DNA from: Gammaproteobacteria bacterium
Lineage (GTDB): Bacteria > Pseudomonadota > Gammaproteobacteria > Pseudomonadales > Balneatricaceae
Assembly: GCA_030748435.1 (NCBI GenBank)
Contig: JASMLZ010000018.1
Span: forward strand, 1-64,000
Length of the DNA stretch: 64,000 nucleotides
Reading direction: 5' to 3'
In this document: positions 1 to 3,700 of the stretch, piece by piece
Numbering within the stretch: position 1 is the stretch's first letter
Layout of the letters: the number at the start of each line of letters is the position of its first letter
Position numbers and translations under genes: made by a program
The notes under the pieces: model-generated
Seen by the model: the letters and a program-made list of their open reading frames with translations, nothing else
Told to the model about the DNA's origin: nothing
Database searches by the model: none

Positions 1-39
1 GAGGCTTTCGCGACGGGGGCTTTTTCGTATATGGCGGTG
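1..39. repeat. Distal copy of a tRNA-Ser 3'-end/terminator direct repeat (putative att site)
   Basis: These 39 bases are identical to 2796-2834. In the second copy they cover the last 8 nt of the tRNA-Ser gene (reading CACCGCCA on the minus strand) and most of the terminator that follows. Identity stops at base 40. To the left the repeat may continue past the window edge. Duplicated tRNA 3' ends are the usual mark of site-specific integration, and this copy is on the side expected for the distal junction, because the tRNA 3' end faces left. Confidence 0.65.
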
Positions 40-174
40 CGAAGCTTCCTTATTCCAGAAGTGTATCACTATTTAGTCCGCTGCTATACCTAAATACACT
101 TAATTCCTAAGCCTTTAGTACATTGACTAAATTCCAATTGTTAATTCCTTATCCGATTTACAATTTATGGTATT

Positions 175-221
175 TTGATATAAACCAAATATTAGCCTAT
201 AATGACCAAAATTTGGTTTAT
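175..221 (+). promoter_or_regulatory. Sigma-70 promoter with overlapping operator-like palindromes
   Basis: A near-consensus promoter is visible: TTGATA at 175-180, a 17-bp spacer and TATAAT at 198-203. Two overlapping dyads cover it. An 11-bp inverted repeat (ATAAACCAAAT at 180-190, its complement at 211-221) brackets the -10 box, and the palindrome ACCAAA-A-TTTGGT lies at 205-217 over the probable start site. The winged-helix protein encoded directly downstream is the obvious candidate ligand, giving negative autoregulation. That link is inferred. Confidence 0.6.
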
Positions 222-236
222 AGGAGATAACTTAAA

Positions 237-566
237 ATGTTAGAGGCCATTGTTGGTAACGCCAGTGCAGAAAAAGTTCTATTATTCATGACTGCCAGAC
301 AATCTGGCTATGCTAGAGAGATTGCTATCAGCTTTAATACTGAGGTCACGCCAATTAAAAACCAACTAGAGCGAATGGAACGTGATGGTATGCTAATCTT
401 TGAAAACGTTGGTAGAACCAAAGTATATAAATTCAACCCTCGTTTCCCCTTTGTAGAAGAAGTGATTGCTTTAGGCAATAAGGCGCTAGGCTATCTACCC
501 CAAAATCTGCAAGAAGAGCTAATCTATAATAGACGCCGGCCTAGAAGAGAAGGGAAACCACTATGA
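237..566 (+). CDS. Small winged-helix DNA-binding protein, putative antitoxin/regulator
   Basis: A 109-residue protein that looks like an ArsR/MarR-type winged helix. Helices at about 8-50 include an apparent recognition segment near residues 35-48, followed by a beta-wing at about 50-66 (phenylalanine, asparagine, glycine, arginine, tyrosine pattern). The basic C-terminus carries an RRRPRR stretch. A good ribosome site (AGGAG at 222-226) precedes the ATG. The stop overlaps the next gene's ATG by 4 nt, so the two are translationally coupled. Small winged-helix proteins paired with nucleotidyltransferase-fold proteins are known from AbiE-like toxin-antitoxin systems, and by that analogy this would be the antitoxin and autorepressor. 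It is much shorter than AbiEi, so the exact family is uncertain. The gene is visibly more AT-rich than the chromosome to its right. Confidence 0.7.
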   Translation: MLEAIVGNASAEKVLLFMTARQSGYAREIAISFNTEVTPIKNQLERMERDGMLIFENVGRTKVYKFNPRFPFVEEVIALGNKALGYLPQNLQEELIYNRRRPRREGKPL

Positions 567-1108
567 TTAACATTTCCTCTCTAAACAGAGAAGAAGTTGC
601 AGGGCTTGTTGGCCAAACCTTAACTGATCACGGCATAGATGCCGTACTAACTGGTGGCTCCTGTGTTGCCATATACACAGGTGAAAAATGGACTTCTTAC
701 GATTTAGATATGGTTGATATCAGCTACAGCACTAAAAAACAAATAGCGGCAGCTCTTGCGACAATTGGTTTCCAATCCATTGGGTCAGGAAATAGGTACT
801 TTGAACACCCACAATGTATCTACCCCATAGAATTCCCAACAGCTCCACTTGGGATAGGGGAAGAAAGTCCAATTGGTGAAGAAGGCATTGCAGAAATCCA
901 AACTGACCATGGTTCATTTAAAATACTCAGTACAACCAATTGCGTGAAAGACCGATTAATTAACTATCTTCTATACCAAGATTTACAGTGCCTTGAACAG
1001 GCTCGATATGTAGCTCAAAATCGACCCGTCAATTTAGAAGATATTCAAGCTTGGTTAGAGGCAGAGGGCTGCCTTGAAGACCCTCTAAAATTGCTTCAGC
1101 TTATCTAA
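563..1108 (+). CDS. Nucleotidyltransferase-fold protein, putative toxin of a two-gene module
   Basis: A 181-residue protein with a minimal nucleotidyltransferase signature: a Gly-Gly-Ser motif (LTGGSCVAIY, about 30-39) followed by an Asp-Leu-Asp pair (SYDLDMVDI, about 45-53). This fits the pattern of a GG(S) turn plus two metal-binding acidic residues. A Lys-Asp-Arg motif near 129-131 in the C-terminal half fits the AbiEii/DUF6036-like group. Proteins of this fold transfer nucleotides to proteins or to tRNA ends, and several are toxins held in check by a co-transcribed winged-helix partner. The ATGA overlap with the upstream gene supports such a pair. Substrate and toxicity cannot be read from sequence, so toxin status is an inference. 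Roughly 130 bp separate it from the convergent fic gene. Confidence 0.6.
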   Translation: MINISSLNREEVAGLVGQTLTDHGIDAVLTGGSCVAIYTGEKWTSYDLDMVDISYSTKKQIAAALATIGFQSIGSGNRYFEHPQCIYPIEFPTAPLGIGEESPIGEEGIAEIQTDHGSFKILSTTNCVKDRLINYLLYQDLQCLEQARYVAQNRPVNLEDIQAWLEAEGCLEDPLKLLQLI

Positions 1109-1244
1109 ATATGAAGTAATGGAGTTGTTAGTAATTAGCTGTGTGATTCACAGACCTTATTCCCTCGATAAACTCCGTTGACTTTCAGTTCAACAACTGA
1201 CTTCAGCTTAAACTGGGAGTTCATTAAGAGACGAACCAGGCAAT

Positions 1245-2372
1245 TTATATGTACTCTAGTTCATAGCTACTGCTACGACCGCCTGCATCCGTTTTCTGTA
1301 ATACACCTTTACTGACCATGTCATTGATATCTCGCAAAGCAGTATCTGTAGAACACTTGGCAATTTTGGCCCACTTGCCAGTTGTCAGTTTTCCTTCAAA
1401 CCCATCAAGTAATCGATTCATCAGTTTAATCTGACGATCATTCATAGACACGCTTGACCAATGCTGCCAAAACTTAGCCTTGACGAATACTTCTGTTAAC
1501 GTTTCGTCGGCTTTTTCCATAGCACGAGACAAACAGCCTAAATACCACTCAAGCCAACCAGTAGTTTCAACCACACCGTTTTGGGTGTACTCAAGCAGCC
1601 TATAGTAATCGTCCACCTCAAGTTTTATCTGCGCTGATAAACTATAAAAACGCTGTGGACAACGTTCAGCCTTTGCTAACGCCATATCGGCTACGGCCCT
1701 AGCAATACGTCCGTTACCATCTTCAAATGGATGTAATGTTACAAACCAAAGATGAGCAATGCCCGCTTTTAGTATCGGATCTAGGTCATCGTCGGCATTA
1801 AACCAAGCTAAAAACTCTGCTGTCAATTCACCTAATTGATCTGCTGGTGGTGCCTCATAATGGACACGTTCTCTGCCAAAAGGCCCTGAGATAACCTGCA
1901 TCGGGCCATCACTATCATCACGCCATTGTGCTGTTAAAATTTTATTGATGCCGCTATATCCCGTTGGAAATAATGAAGCATGCCAACCGAACAATCTATC
2001 CTCAGTCAAAGGTTCTTCAAACCGACCCGTGACATCCAGAATCATTTCCACCACACCATCAACATGCCGGTCTGCTGGAACCAAAGCACCAATGTCTACA
2101 CCTAGTCTACGGGCGACAGATGATCGTACTATATCAGGATTTAAATGTTCACCTTCTATCTCACTGGTTTTTAATACATCCTCCGTGACTACCCTTAAAG
2201 CAGCCTCATCACGAAGCCCCATGCCAATGTCATGCATTCGGCCAAGAAGGCGTCCTTGCTGACTATGCACTTTTGCAAGGAGGCCAACCAGACGTTTTAA
2301 ATCAAACTGCCAGTTTGTCCACCCAGTGTGTTTCCAGATATAATTACCGCTATTCATGCGGTTATTATGCAC
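1245..2372 (-). CDS. Fic family protein (putative protein adenylyltransferase), inhibitory helix fused at the N-terminus
   Basis: A 375-residue Fic protein. The catalytic motif HPFEDGNGR lies at 214-222, with Arg225 completing HPFx(D/E)GNGRxxR, so the catalytic His and the phosphate-binding loop are intact. An inhibitory motif TSEIEG at 69-74 matches (S/T)xxxE(G/N), marking a class II enzyme with an N-terminal autoinhibitory helix. Residues 10-60 resemble the DUF4172 region found in these proteins, and the last 70 residues look like a winged helix. Such enzymes transfer AMP from ATP to target proteins and are restrained by the helix; the target here is unknown. The longest reading starts at GTG (2372), with an in-frame ATG at 2357; neither has a strong ribosome site. 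It converges on the nucleotidyltransferase gene inside the same putative island. Confidence 0.85.
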   Translation of the reverse strand: MHNNRMNSGNYIWKHTGWTNWQFDLKRLVGLLAKVHSQQGRLLGRMHDIGMGLRDEAALRVVTEDVLKTSEIEGEHLNPDIVRSSVARRLGVDIGALVPADRHVDGVVEMILDVTGRFEEPLTEDRLFGWHASLFPTGYSGINKILTAQWRDDSDGPMQVISGPFGRERVHYEAPPADQLGELTAEFLAWFNADDDLDPILKAGIAHLWFVTLHPFEDGNGRIARAVADMALAKAERCPQRFYSLSAQIKLEVDDYYRLLEYTQNGVVETTGWLEWYLGCLSRAMEKADETLTEVFVKAKFWQHWSSVSMNDRQIKLMNRLLDGFEGKLTTGKWAKIAKCSTDTALRDINDMVSKGVLQKTDAGGRSSSYELEYI

Positions 2373-2437
2373 CCCATTTACCGCAAAGGCAATATTCGCC
2401 GCACATAATGCGGCGAATAGCTGGCTTATTTACCGCA
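2342..2437. promoter_or_regulatory. Iterated TTACCGC-type motifs over the start of the fic gene
   Basis: A motif resembling ATTTACCGCA recurs four times: 2342-2350, 2376-2385 and 2428-2437 in the plus orientation, and 2358-2367 inverted. The first and the inverted copy form a dyad over the fic start codons. A separate perfect 10-bp inverted repeat (ATTCGCCGCA and its complement, 2394-2418, 5-nt loop) lies between the last copies. This arrangement looks like a multi-site operator. The Fic protein has a putative C-terminal winged helix, so self-regulation is possible but unproven. Confidence 0.4.
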
Positions 2438-2779
2438 TTCAGCCCCACACCCTGCCCGATCGGGCAGCTGATATTTCAAACTGATTTACATTAGACTTGC
2501 TTTAAAAGCGATTCAGAACGTTCATGTCCACCCCATTAAAAAGCAGGCTAAACATGCACGAACTATTTGAAGCCCTATAGGGCCCAGAAACGAAAAAACC
2601 GATTCAAGAGAATCGGTTGGTGCTGGCGTAGATAATCCGTGCCAACGAGCAGTCTTTACCAAAGGGATGGGCTGATAACGCCATTGCCTCTGGCGTTATC
2701 ACTGCTACGCAGCGCTTTGCGGCCCAAACGCTTGCGCGTTTGTCGAACCGTTAGGCTTCTCACCGACCCTAATCATCAT
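2373..2779. other. Non-coding right end of the island, rich in inverted repeats
   Basis: I see no convincing gene in these about 400 bases. They hold the fic upstream region, a minus-strand terminator (2593-2618), a perfect 10-bp dyad (GATAACGCCA at 2672-2681 with its complement at 2689-2698) and a 6-bp dyad (CAAACG/CGTTTG) near 2726-2743. A run reading GCCAGCACCA on the minus strand directly before the 2593-2618 terminator looks like a tRNA 3' end, but no tRNA body is recognisable. This is the texture of integration-site debris. Confidence 0.4.
2593..2618 (-). terminator. Rho-independent terminator, minus strand
   Basis: A perfect 9-bp stem (AACCGATTC at 2597-2605, its complement at 2610-2618, AAGA loop) is followed on the minus strand by six uridines. 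No minus-strand gene that would need it is visible immediately upstream, so it may have come with a lost gene. Confidence 0.65.
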
Positions 2780-2825
2780 ATACGAAAAAGCCCCCGAGGC
2801 TTTCGCGACGGGGGCTTTTTCGTAT
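2780..2825 (-). terminator. Terminator of the tRNA-Ser gene
   Basis: A perfect 17-bp stem (2780-2796 with 2809-2825, 12-nt loop) contains the GCCCCCG/CGGGGGC core followed by T-runs on both strands, so it should work in both directions. It begins 1 nt after the tRNA CCA end. Its loop and left-reading arm are part of the 39-bp direct repeat also found at 1-39. Confidence 0.85.
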
Positions 2826-2834
2826 ATGGCGGTG
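2796..2834. repeat. Proximal copy of the 39-bp direct repeat (putative att site at tRNA-Ser)
   Basis: Identical to bases 1-39. It spans the loop and one arm of the tRNA terminator and the last 8 nt of the tRNA gene. The tRNA stays intact on this side, as expected when an element integrates at a tRNA 3' end and restores it. Confidence 0.65.
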
Positions 2835-2914
2835 AGGGAGGGATTCGAACCCTCGGTACGTTTCCGTACACACACTTTCCAGGCGTGCTCCTTCGGCCAC
2901 TCGGACACCTCACC
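2827..2914 (-). tRNA. tRNA-Ser (GGA anticodon)
   Basis: An 88-nt gene with an encoded CCA end. The acceptor stem GGTGAGG pairs with CCTCACC, the T-loop reads GGTTCGAATCC, a long variable arm (TACGG...CCGTA) marks a class II tRNA, and the anticodon loop reads CTGGAAA, giving anticodon GGA for UCC/UCU serine codons. It is closely similar to the well-known E. coli tRNA-Ser(GGA). A promoter lies just upstream and a terminator directly downstream, so it is a single-gene transcript. Its 3' end serves as the apparent integration target for the element to its left. Confidence 0.97.
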
Positions 2915-2927
2915 ATTTGAGGCGCAA

Positions 2928-2956
2928 ATTCTATTGGTTTCACTGGCAAAAAGCAA
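2928..2956 (-). promoter_or_regulatory. tRNA-Ser promoter
   Basis: On the minus strand, TTGCTT (2951-2956) and TAGAAT (2928-2933) are separated by exactly 17 bp, which puts the start about 7 nt upstream of the mature tRNA. Confidence 0.6.
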
Positions 2957-3133
2957 TGCCTTTTTCCTTTATTTATCAAGATATTCAGGCAACTGTTATG
3001 GCTTTTGGCAAGCTCTATATTGGGCCTTAATTACAGGCTTGTTAACATATCGAGGATAACTAAACTATAAGTGCTCAGACGGTGTCTATTTGGCCGGATC
3101 CAAGTTGTGACTATATTGACTGATTAAGGCCTG

Positions 3134-3700
3134 TTATTGATTGCCAGCCCAGCTACTAACAAAGGTAGAAGAGTCTATTGCAGGGGCACTTTTAGCTGGG
3201 TTTTTGGGTGTACCCAAATAGATATAACCCAGCATCTGTTCGTCTTCCTTGAGGCCAAGGCGACGTATTATTTCTTTATCTTCTGCCACCCAACCGGTAC
3301 GCCATACGGCGCCCAACCCCTGAGCAAAGGCCGCATGCAATATATTTTGCCCAGCGCAAGCTGTGGTGCACACCTGTTCTGCCACTGGCACCTTGGCGTG
3401 TTGTCTGGGGCAAGCCACCAGAGCCACCAGTAAGGGGGCACGCAGGGGCATATTGCGGGCTTTATTGCAGGCCTTTTCATCGGCCTCCGGATTTAGTGCC
3501 AACAGGCGTTCCACAAATAGCTCGCCCAGTGCCTGGCGCTGCTCGCCCCCTATAACAATAAAGCGATAAGGGTTTAAGCGACCATGGTCTGGTGACCTGA
3601 GGGCGGCCTGAAAGATATTTTCCAATTGCTCGTGCGATGGTGCCGGCTCTTCCAGTAGAGGCATAGATACGCGATTTAACAGGCCCTGTAGCATATTCAT
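3134..3700 (-). CDS. Nitroreductase family protein, YdjA-like
   Basis: A 188-residue single-domain FMN-dependent nitroreductase. The N-terminal part contains the pattern RSPDHGRLNPYRF (about 35-47), the FMN phosphate-binding region of the short YdjA subgroup. The central helix with QNILHAAFAQGLGAVWRTG (about 118-136) is typical of the flavin-contacting second half. These enzymes are homodimers in the cytoplasm that reduce nitro- or quinone-type compounds with NAD(P)H; the natural substrate is unknown. It lies 2 nt after queF on the same strand and is probably co-transcribed with it, although no functional link to queuosine is established. Confidence 0.85.
   Translation of the reverse strand: MNMLQGLLNRVSMPLLEEPAPSHEQLENIFQAALRSPDHGRLNPYRFIVIGGEQRQALGELFVERLLALNPEADEKACNKARNMPLRAPLLVALVACPRQHAKVPVAEQVCTTACAGQNILHAAFAQGLGAVWRTGWVAEDKEIIRRLGLKEDEQMLGYIYLGTPKNPAKSAPAIDSSTFVSSWAGNQ

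What the first reader, a model, noticed from the sequence alone, without database searches (positions are those of the whole stretch)
1245..2372. Autoinhibited Fic enzyme in the same island
Both the active HPFEDGNGR motif and the inhibitory TSEIEG motif are intact, so the enzyme should be functional and self-restrained. Co-location of two different nucleotide-transfer proteins in under 3 kb suggests a defence or stress-response cargo.
Basis: partly seen in the sequence, partly recalled or inferred. Interest (0 to 1): 0.5.

Follow-up and report, generated by a model that had tools for sequence, protein, structure and literature searches.

The report
Self-repressing Fic enzyme with conserved operator
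A mobile bacterial enzyme that tags other proteins with AMP appears to bind a conserved array of DNA boxes over its own promoter and so switch its own gene off, and related enzymes in other bacteria have changed the box sequence while largely keeping its layout.

Summary
In detail: 1245-2372 (-) encodes a class II Fic enzyme (DUF4172, Fic, winged helix) with both motifs intact; the start is probably ATG 2357. It lies in a 2.8-kb islet between 39-bp perfect repeats at tRNA-Ser(gga), with no integrase seen. A functional pair with the nucleotidyltransferase is not supported: 0 of 80 Fic loci carry it and 0 of 28 nucleotidyltransferase loci carry a Fic. A phage contig has a 94% identical Fic; DNA identity ends about 55 bp upstream of the gene.

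The main find is that upstream stretch. Six TGCGGNGAAT-like boxes form two F-19-R-15-F copies spanning promoter and start codon. The composite, defined after inspection, scores 20 or more of 27 before Fic in 76 of 77 loci, against 3 of 1,451,378 other positions. Elsewhere the box changes with the recognition helix, while repeat spacing is 34 or 44 bp by clade. Best reading: the enzyme represses its own gene. Auto-repression is published for a distant Fic (CccR) and DNA-switched activity for CbFic2. Binding and anti-phage function are untested.

The parts
1245..2357 (-).
2428..2437 (-). operator box F1 TGCGGTAAAT
   Evidence: 1 mismatch; spacing rule
2409..2418 (-). operator box R2 ATTCGCCGCA (19 bp after F1)
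   Evidence: 0 mismatches; the R2/F3 pair is the only match in the genome at up to 3 mismatches (the reversed control pattern also matched one place)
2394..2403 (-). operator box F3 TGCGGCGAAT (15 bp after R2)
   Evidence: (0 mismatches)
2376..2385 (-). operator box F4 TGCGGTAAAT, between the promoter hexamers
   Evidence: 1 mismatch
2357..2366 (-). operator box R5 AATAACCGCA (19 bp after F4), overlapping the -10 and the first base of ATG
   Evidence: 2 mismatches
2342..2351 (-). operator box F6 AGCGGTAATT (15 bp after R5), inside the first codons
   Evidence: 3 mismatches to the full box
2364..2392 (-). promoter-like TTGCCT (2387-2392), 17 bp, CATAAT (2364-2369)
   Evidence: 2 promoter-like sites found in 2300-2600, 0.7 expected; present in the phage copy
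237..566 (+). winged-helix gene, first gene of the nucleotidyltransferase operon
563..1108 (+). nucleotidyltransferase-like gene (GGS and DLD motifs by eye), overlaps the wHTH gene by 4 bp
   Evidence: (DUF2204 below cut-off)
179..222 (.). inverted repeat before the wHTH gene, likely operator of that operon
   Evidence: I5, 15 nt, 93%; similar repeats in many homologues by eye, not counted
1..39 (.). distal copy of the 39-bp direct repeat (attachment-like); also the start of the contig
2796..2834 (.). tRNA-side copy of the 39-bp direct repeat
2827..2914 (-). tRNA-Ser(gga), inferred integration target
2448..2579 (.). module shared (88%) with the end of contig C92, where it follows a second Fic gene; contains the start of a truncated HTH frame (2554-2580)
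2581..2760 (.). hairpin-rich segment with no other match in the genome, origin unknown

Best explanation
A tRNA-Ser islet carries two independent, apparently self-regulating modules. The Fic is a stand-alone enzyme of the CbFic2 type: an autoinhibited class II AMPylase whose C-terminal winged helix represses its own gene. It binds boxes TGCGGNGAAT arranged as two copies of F-19-R-15-F that span the -35, the -10 and the start codon. By analogy with CbFic2, the DNA-bound dimer would be the quiet or deAMPylating state and free enzyme the AMPylating, growth-arresting state, so losing occupancy would both raise the dose and activate the enzyme. Shown here: anatomy, one gene-sized transfer with the promoter region, operator conservation and spacing, and association of box class with the recognition helix. 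Inferred: that the Fic itself binds, repression, the activity switch, and an anti-phage role.
For: Sequence and fold: 8CIL is the best PDB match by sequence (8.1e-101) and by fold (TM 0.91, 43% identity, rmsd 2.4); the model has mean pLDDT 90 and a C-terminal wHTH with helix 337-349. Operator: composite template mean 23.6 of 27 in 80 upstreams against 13.3 (maximum 19) in 1,600 shuffles, every upstream holding at least one box at up to 1 mismatch. It scores 20 or more in 76 of 77 genome loci against 3 of 1,451,378 other positions in the same loci. F-to-R spacing 19 occurs 106 times and R-to-F spacing 15 occurs 105 times. In 23 of the 80 the last F box lies before the first in-frame ATG (40 after, 17 not scored), so there it is not a peptide constraint. 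In the window's genome the R2/F3 pair matches only this locus. Wider sample of 86: other boxes, with direct-repeat spacing 34 or 44 bp. Signature S.D[TS]A.RD is in 48 of 48 class A and 0 of 41 other classed proteins. The phage copy matches at 91% over gene plus about 55 bp upstream only.
Against: No binding, repression or activity was measured. The template and the helix signatures were written after seeing the sequences. Box class also follows the phylogeny of the rest of the protein: mean mutual information is 0.60 in the helix against 0.57 elsewhere (0.47 against 0.35 when divided by entropy). L291 has the GAGCCGAAT box without its usual helix. One of 80 upstreams scores only 17, within the shuffle range. 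In the motif-free scan (17,17) scores nearly as well as (19,15) (20.63 against 20.83; both sum to 34), and (19,15) is best or tied in only 30 of 86. 13 of 102 proteins in the tree set (15 of 86 upstreams) have no box class by my patterns, and of those 13 one carries the A and four the C signature. The genome scan's reversed control pattern also matched one place. DNA-driven deAMPylation is known to me only for CbFic2. CccR's regulatory and toxic activities were reported to be independent (PMC9755527, passages).
Confidence: 0.72

Rival explanations
1. The boxes are read by another, host-encoded regulator; the Fic's winged helix does something else, such as substrate recruitment or non-specific DNA binding.
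For: CbFic2 binds random DNA with nanomolar affinity (PMC10628234, Discussion passages). Box class cannot be cleanly separated from protein phylogeny.
Against: The same box lies before Fic in loci titled as Proteobacteria, Bacteroidota, Nocardia, Akkermansia, Eremiobacterota and Omnitrophota (titles, several of them metagenome bins; boxes). The R2/F3 pair matches no other place in the window's genome, the promoter region moved with the gene between phage and islet, and in two of the three genomes where I had two copies the classes differ (the third has one unassigned copy).
Confidence: 0.12
2. One reading: Fic and nucleotidyltransferase form one defence or stress-response cargo unit.
For: Both lie inside one repeat-bounded 2.8-kb unit. 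The Fic matches the PADLOC SoFic model (2.5e-38) and the wHTH matches PDC-M05A (1.2e-9).
Against: 0 of 80 Fic loci and 0 of 28 nucleotidyltransferase loci show the other partner. I saw no such pair among the frames in the 13 kb held around the phage copy (by eye). The genes face opposite ways and each has its own promoter-side repeats.
Confidence: 0.08
3. The Fic is an exported effector, like its closest solved relative and CccR, rather than a gene acting in its own cell.
For: The closest solved structure is a reported effector of an intracellular bacterium (8CIL, CbFic2), and CccR, a more distant Fic-wHTH protein, is secreted.
Against: The closest homologues sit in a phage contig and in environmental genomes, near what reads by eye as a phage methylase remnant or near the PrlF-YhaV pair. 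Secretion signals were not examined.
Confidence: 0.08
4. The islet is decayed cargo with no present function.
For: I saw no integrase in the islet (ORF list), and its HTH frame beside the repeat is truncated.
Against: The Fic active site, inhibitory motif, promoter-like site and operator are intact, and the nucleotidyltransferase operon has open frames.
Confidence: 0.1

Closest known systems
CbFic2 (PDB 8CIL), DUF4172-Fic-wHTH
   Same: Same three-domain order over nearly the whole length, inhibitory and catalytic motifs of the same kind, 43% identity, TM 0.91; reported as DNA-binding with dimers induced by 20-bp but not 10-bp DNA and as a deAMPylase when dimeric (abstract)
   Different: Work on CbFic2 used random DNA and left a specific site open; here a specific composite operator is inferred. 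Host and likely target differ
CccR, Fic-wHTH auto-repressor and T6SS effector
   Different: CccR uses one pair of boxes 26 bp apart with another sequence; here six boxes at steps of 19 and 15 bp. 7XUX, which I take from recall to be the CccR entry, gives TM only 0.51-0.53
SoFic / EcSofic single-gene anti-phage system
   Same: Class II Fic with C-terminal domain; PADLOC SoFic model matches at 2.5e-38
   Different: Far below the NCBIfam SoFic equivalog cut-off (52.8 against 550 bits). EcSofic has a downstream 47-residue antitoxin gene AS1; here no same-strand frame of 50 aa or more lies directly downstream, shorter ones not examined
AbiE (AbiEi-AbiEii) type IV toxin-antitoxin
   Same: For the neighbouring operon: wHTH gene overlapping a nucleotidyltransferase gene, inverted repeat at the promoter (AbiE abstract and section list)
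   Different: No Pfam AbiEi or AbiEii match at E up to 0.1; the wHTH protein is only 109 aa

Membership tests
Class II Fic AMPylases | HxFx[D/E]GNGRxxR catalytic motif | tested here: met
   HPFEDGNGRIAR; H209, D213, G214, N215, G216, R217 and R220 invariant in 31 homologues
Class II Fic AMPylases | N-terminal [S/T]xxxE[G/N] inhibitory helix before the Fic domain | tested here: met
   TSEIEG within DUF4172; E68 invariant in 31 homologues
CbFic2-type DUF4172-Fic-wHTH proteins | DUF4172, Fic and C-terminal wHTH in one chain with the 8CIL fold | tested here: met
   (the wHTH shown by model and fold; the Pfam HTH match is below cut-off)
CbFic2-type DUF4172-Fic-wHTH proteins | DNA-induced dimer with deAMPylase activity | not testable with these tools
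   needs purified protein
SoFic equivalog (NCBIfam NF046030) | curated score of at least 550 bits | tested here: not met
   52.8 bits
SoFic-like anti-phage systems | protects cells against phage | not testable with these tools
   PADLOC model match only
Auto-repressing Fic-wHTH (CccR-like) | specific binding sites over its own promoter | tested here: inconclusive
   strong comparative evidence for an operator; binding not measured
tRNA-targeting integrative element | direct repeats, one reconstituting the tRNA 3' end | tested here: met
   39-bp perfect repeats, tRNA-Ser(gga)
tRNA-targeting integrative element | carries its own integrase | tested here: not met
   no integrase seen by eye among ORFs of 50 aa or more in 40-2834; the PF00589 matches in the genome lie on other contigs
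AbiE (neighbouring operon) | AbiEi and AbiEii family membership | tested here: not met
   no such Pfam match at E up to 0.1

The most novel reading that the evidence does not exclude
The operator is the antitoxin. Because CbFic2 is reported to turn into a deAMPylating dimer on DNA, the six-box array would act as a high-affinity DNA off-switch that keeps the few Fic molecules harmless. Loss or replacement of that DNA (phage takeover, host DNA breakdown, loss of the element) would release AMPylating enzyme and arrest growth, giving a single-gene addiction or abortive-infection module whose antitoxin is its own promoter. Divergent box and helix classes would keep paralogues and incoming copies from silencing each other.
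Probability: 0.18. Interest if true: 0.85.

Novelty: new variant of a known kind. Interest (0 to 1): 0.62.

Why it matters
DUF4172-Fic proteins are common (86 of 398 sampled genomes of the phylum, this one included). The one studied in depth switches activity on DNA, but its natural DNA site was left open. A conserved composite operator with fixed spacing gives an exact DNA ligand to test, could explain how a stand-alone Fic is kept in check without a partner antitoxin, and offers a ready protein-to-box specificity set.

Tried and rejected
Fic-nucleotidyltransferase pairing: looked for in 80 plus 28 loci, not found.

Single-gene Fic cassettes between tRNA-derived repeats as a general rule: clear in L108 (tRNA-Gln) and L127 (tRNA-Phe). 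Flanking repeats of 40 bits or more occur in 4 of 70 loci (L108, L127, L136, L148; the last two are not tRNA-derived by eye, and L148's repeat lies at a contig end) against 3 of 239 control intervals, two of those in one locus. One search examined 74 loci (six more had too short a flank); I dropped four (L101, L104, L120, L142) whose hit was the flank matched to itself. I treat this as a minority pattern.

attC-like reading of 2660-2760: no proper GTTRRRY partner by eye; it folds better than its shuffles (z -3.86) but was not identified. In 1-3200 only the tRNA reached its Rfam gathering score.

Nucleotidyltransferase fold: the single-sequence model was poor (pLDDT 42.3) and was not searched; no PDB sequence match at E up to 1.

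Mutual information as proof of helix-box coupling: not conclusive, because class follows phylogeny.

Pair-distance scan: the convergent and divergent rows are the same number by construction, so only its direct-repeat row is used.

Not in print: no operator for DUF4172 Fic proteins turned up in searches, in an open-access library only, judged from listings and the few papers opened (for, only the first 10 of 230 papers were listed).

Slips in my notebook, mended here: note 5 says 78 genome loci where 77 were used; note 2 says 7 of 80 Fic loci have a tRNA within 700 bp where a recount gives 8.

Full report
Observation. The frame 1245-2372 (-) is a 375-aa protein with DUF4172 (11-92) and Fic (121-232) domains. 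The catalytic motif HPFEDGNGRIAR and the inhibitory motif TSEIEG are intact, and their key residues are invariant in 31 aligned homologues. AlphaFold2 with those homologues gives pLDDT 90 and pTM 0.85, ending in a winged helix (helices 307-317, 326-333, 337-349, strands 353-357 and 363-367). The nearest solved structure is 8CIL (CbFic2): 8.1e-101 by sequence, TM 0.91 and 43% identity by fold.

Islet. The window is the left end of contig C18. 39-bp perfect direct repeats lie at 1-39 and 2796-2834, the latter covering the 3' end of tRNA-Ser(gga) and the hairpin behind it. Between them are the wHTH-nucleotidyltransferase operon, the Fic, a 130-bp module with a truncated HTH frame, and an unidentified segment 2581-2760; I saw no integrase among the frames. 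One other contig end found by the search bears the repeat: C92 ends with 49 bases identical to 2761-2809, after a second Fic gene and the same 130-bp module (88%). I infer, but have not shown, that C92 joins C18 there, giving tandem units. Within the genus the strong Fic match is confined to this genome: of 14 other genomes, 12 have none and 2 have weak matches (4.0e-6 and 4.9e-6). The same tRNA holds other cargo elsewhere in the genus: an MBL-fold hydrolase between imperfect repeats in G010 and, in a contig with runs of N, what reads as the same gene in G003, and a 7.5-kb integrase island between two tRNA-Ser copies in G013.

The two modules are independent. tblastn of both operon proteins against 80 Fic loci (778,643 bases) gave no hit. 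In 293 genomes of the order, 25, this one included, carry the nucleotidyltransferase; in the 28 other places (four with a stop inside the matched frame) all 28 have a wHTH match beside it and none has this Fic. It also occurs on 18 plasmid records, 15 of them Leptospira. It looks like an AbiE-type module but matches no AbiE family.

Phage link. A viral contig (L175; terminase large subunit, ParB-methylase) carries a Fic 94% identical. DNA identity of 91% covers window 1256-2411 only, that is the gene and about 55 bp upstream, ending inside box R2; beyond that the phage copy has its own boxes. Beside it is a PrlF-YhaV toxin-antitoxin pair. The next-closest homologues, L069 and L070, have what reads by eye as the end of a DNA methylase just upstream of Fic.

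Operator. Upstreams were taken from 77 of the 80 genome loci (three were dropped because the contig ended too near), two viral loci and the window. The template TGCGGNGAAT-N9-ATTCNCCGCA-N5-TGCGGNGAAT, written after looking at these upstreams, scores on average 23.6 of 27, against 13.3 (maximum 19) in 1,600 dinucleotide shuffles; 79 of 80 exceed every shuffle and one scores 17. In the same 77 loci, 76 reach 20 or more upstream of Fic, while 3 of 1,451,378 other positions do, two of them a few hundred bases upstream of the L145 Fic. Neighbouring boxes are spaced 19 (F to R, 106 times) or 15 (R to F, 105 times). In the window they are F1 2428-2437, R2 2409-2418, F3 2394-2403, F4 2376-2385, R5 2357-2366 and F6 2342-2351, with steps 19, 15, 18, 19 and 15: two copies of one composite, the last two boxes with 2 and 3 mismatches. 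A promoter-like site lies within the array: TTGCCT between F3 and F4, and CATAAT overlapping R5. In 40 of 80 the last F box follows the first in-frame ATG, in 23 it precedes it and 17 were not scored, so coding sequence does not explain those 23. In this 2.6-Mb genome the R2/F3 pair is found here only, at 0 mismatches, with none other at up to 3; the reversed control pattern also matched one place.

Wider family. DUF4172 occurs in 86 of 398 genomes of the phylum. I examined 82 of the 92 listed places plus L010, L011, L012 and L014 (L010 is itself one of the 92), 86 upstreams in all. Without assuming any box sequence, spacing (19,15) ranks first of 400 combinations (mean 20.83 against 16.00, sd 0.77), followed by (17,17) at 20.63, which has the same sum; (19,15) is best or tied in 30 of 86. 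Direct repeats peak at 34 bp in 57 upstreams, as in the 80 above, and at 44 bp in the 29 whose protein begins xNW, a difference close to one helical turn. On a tree built without the HTH, 34 bp fits better in 44 of 49 of one clade and 44 bp in 24 of 32 of the other.

Box classes. By pattern these are A TGCGGNGAAT, B TGAGCCGAAT, E TGAGGCGAAT, C TGAGNTATA (with TGAGCGATA) and D TGATTAATA, with 15 of 86 unassigned; I moved L293 from A to E by eye. In 102 proteins (81 of the 86, 20 of the 80 loci, and the window) the helix signature of each class is found in A 48 of 48, B 16 of 17, E 4 of 5, C 14 of 14 and D 5 of 5, and in another class only once (C's signature in one E protein); of 13 unassigned proteins one has the A and four the C signature. 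These signatures were written after seeing the alignment, and class is clustered on the tree (17 changes against 49.9 shuffled), so independence from descent is not proved. L271 falls outside the main B clade yet has both the B box and the B helix; L291 has a B box with another helix. In the three genomes where I had two copies, two (G500, G658) have A with C and the third (G583) has C with an unassigned copy.

What is known. CccR represses its own promoter through two 10-bp boxes 26 bp apart (PMC9755527, passages). CbFic2 binds DNA through its wHTH, dimerises on 20-bp but not 10-bp DNA, and is proposed to turn to deAMPylation; only random DNA was used (PMC10628234, abstract, passages and the first part of section 15). 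EcSofic is toxic despite the class II helix and is countered by AS1 (PMC12249575, abstract and sections 3 and 4). A 2026 review (PMC12894286) adds no DUF4172 operator in the passages seen. So self-repression by a Fic is known; a family-wide composite operator with changing specificity for the DUF4172 branch is, as far as the searches listed under Tried and rejected show, new.

Mechanism. Most likely, dimers on the array hold transcription low, and by analogy hold the enzyme in its quiet state; loss of occupancy raises dose and activity together. The first half rests on strong comparative evidence, the second on one studied relative, and the anti-phage role on a model match and the phage-borne copy only.

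Noticed in passing
L006:18651-19700 (end of contig C92): A second, SoFic-like class II Fic (PADLOC SoFic 4.1e-50) precedes the same 130-bp module and tRNA-terminator repeat; an inverted repeat ATTTACA...TGTAAAT lies upstream of it (by eye).
   Followed up: partly
L055:4951-6072 and L056:811-3007: In two genus mates the same tRNA-Ser site holds an MBL-fold hydrolase (L056 by eye, with runs of N) flanked by imperfect tRNA-terminator repeats, with no integrase seen between them.
   Followed up: partly
L108:5782-7216 and L127:5726-7265: Fic homologues alone between partial tRNA-Gln or tRNA-Phe repeats, as 1.3-1.5 kb units without an integrase. 8 of 80 Fic loci have a tRNA within 700 bp (no control made).
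   Followed up: partly
window 237-1108: The wHTH-nucleotidyltransferase operon is a conserved two-gene module (28 of 28); the nucleotidyltransferase also occurs on Leptospira, Sulfurospirillum, Sulfurimonas and Bdellovibrio plasmids. It resembles AbiE but has no family name above cut-off in the libraries searched.
   Followed up: partly
L175:4828-5672: PrlF-YhaV toxin-antitoxin pair next to the phage-borne Fic; what look by eye like the same two genes lie near Fic in L069.
   Followed up: partly
window 2581-2760: Segment with strong hairpins and no other match in the genome, interrupting the small HTH frame that is longer on C92.
   Followed up: partly
L006:18050-18500: Remnant that reads by eye like a recombinase-family protein, upstream of the second Fic.
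   Followed up: no
L057:7552-15136: Tyrosine-recombinase island between two complete tRNA-Ser(gga) copies in a genus mate, a possible kind of source of integrase in trans.
   Followed up: no
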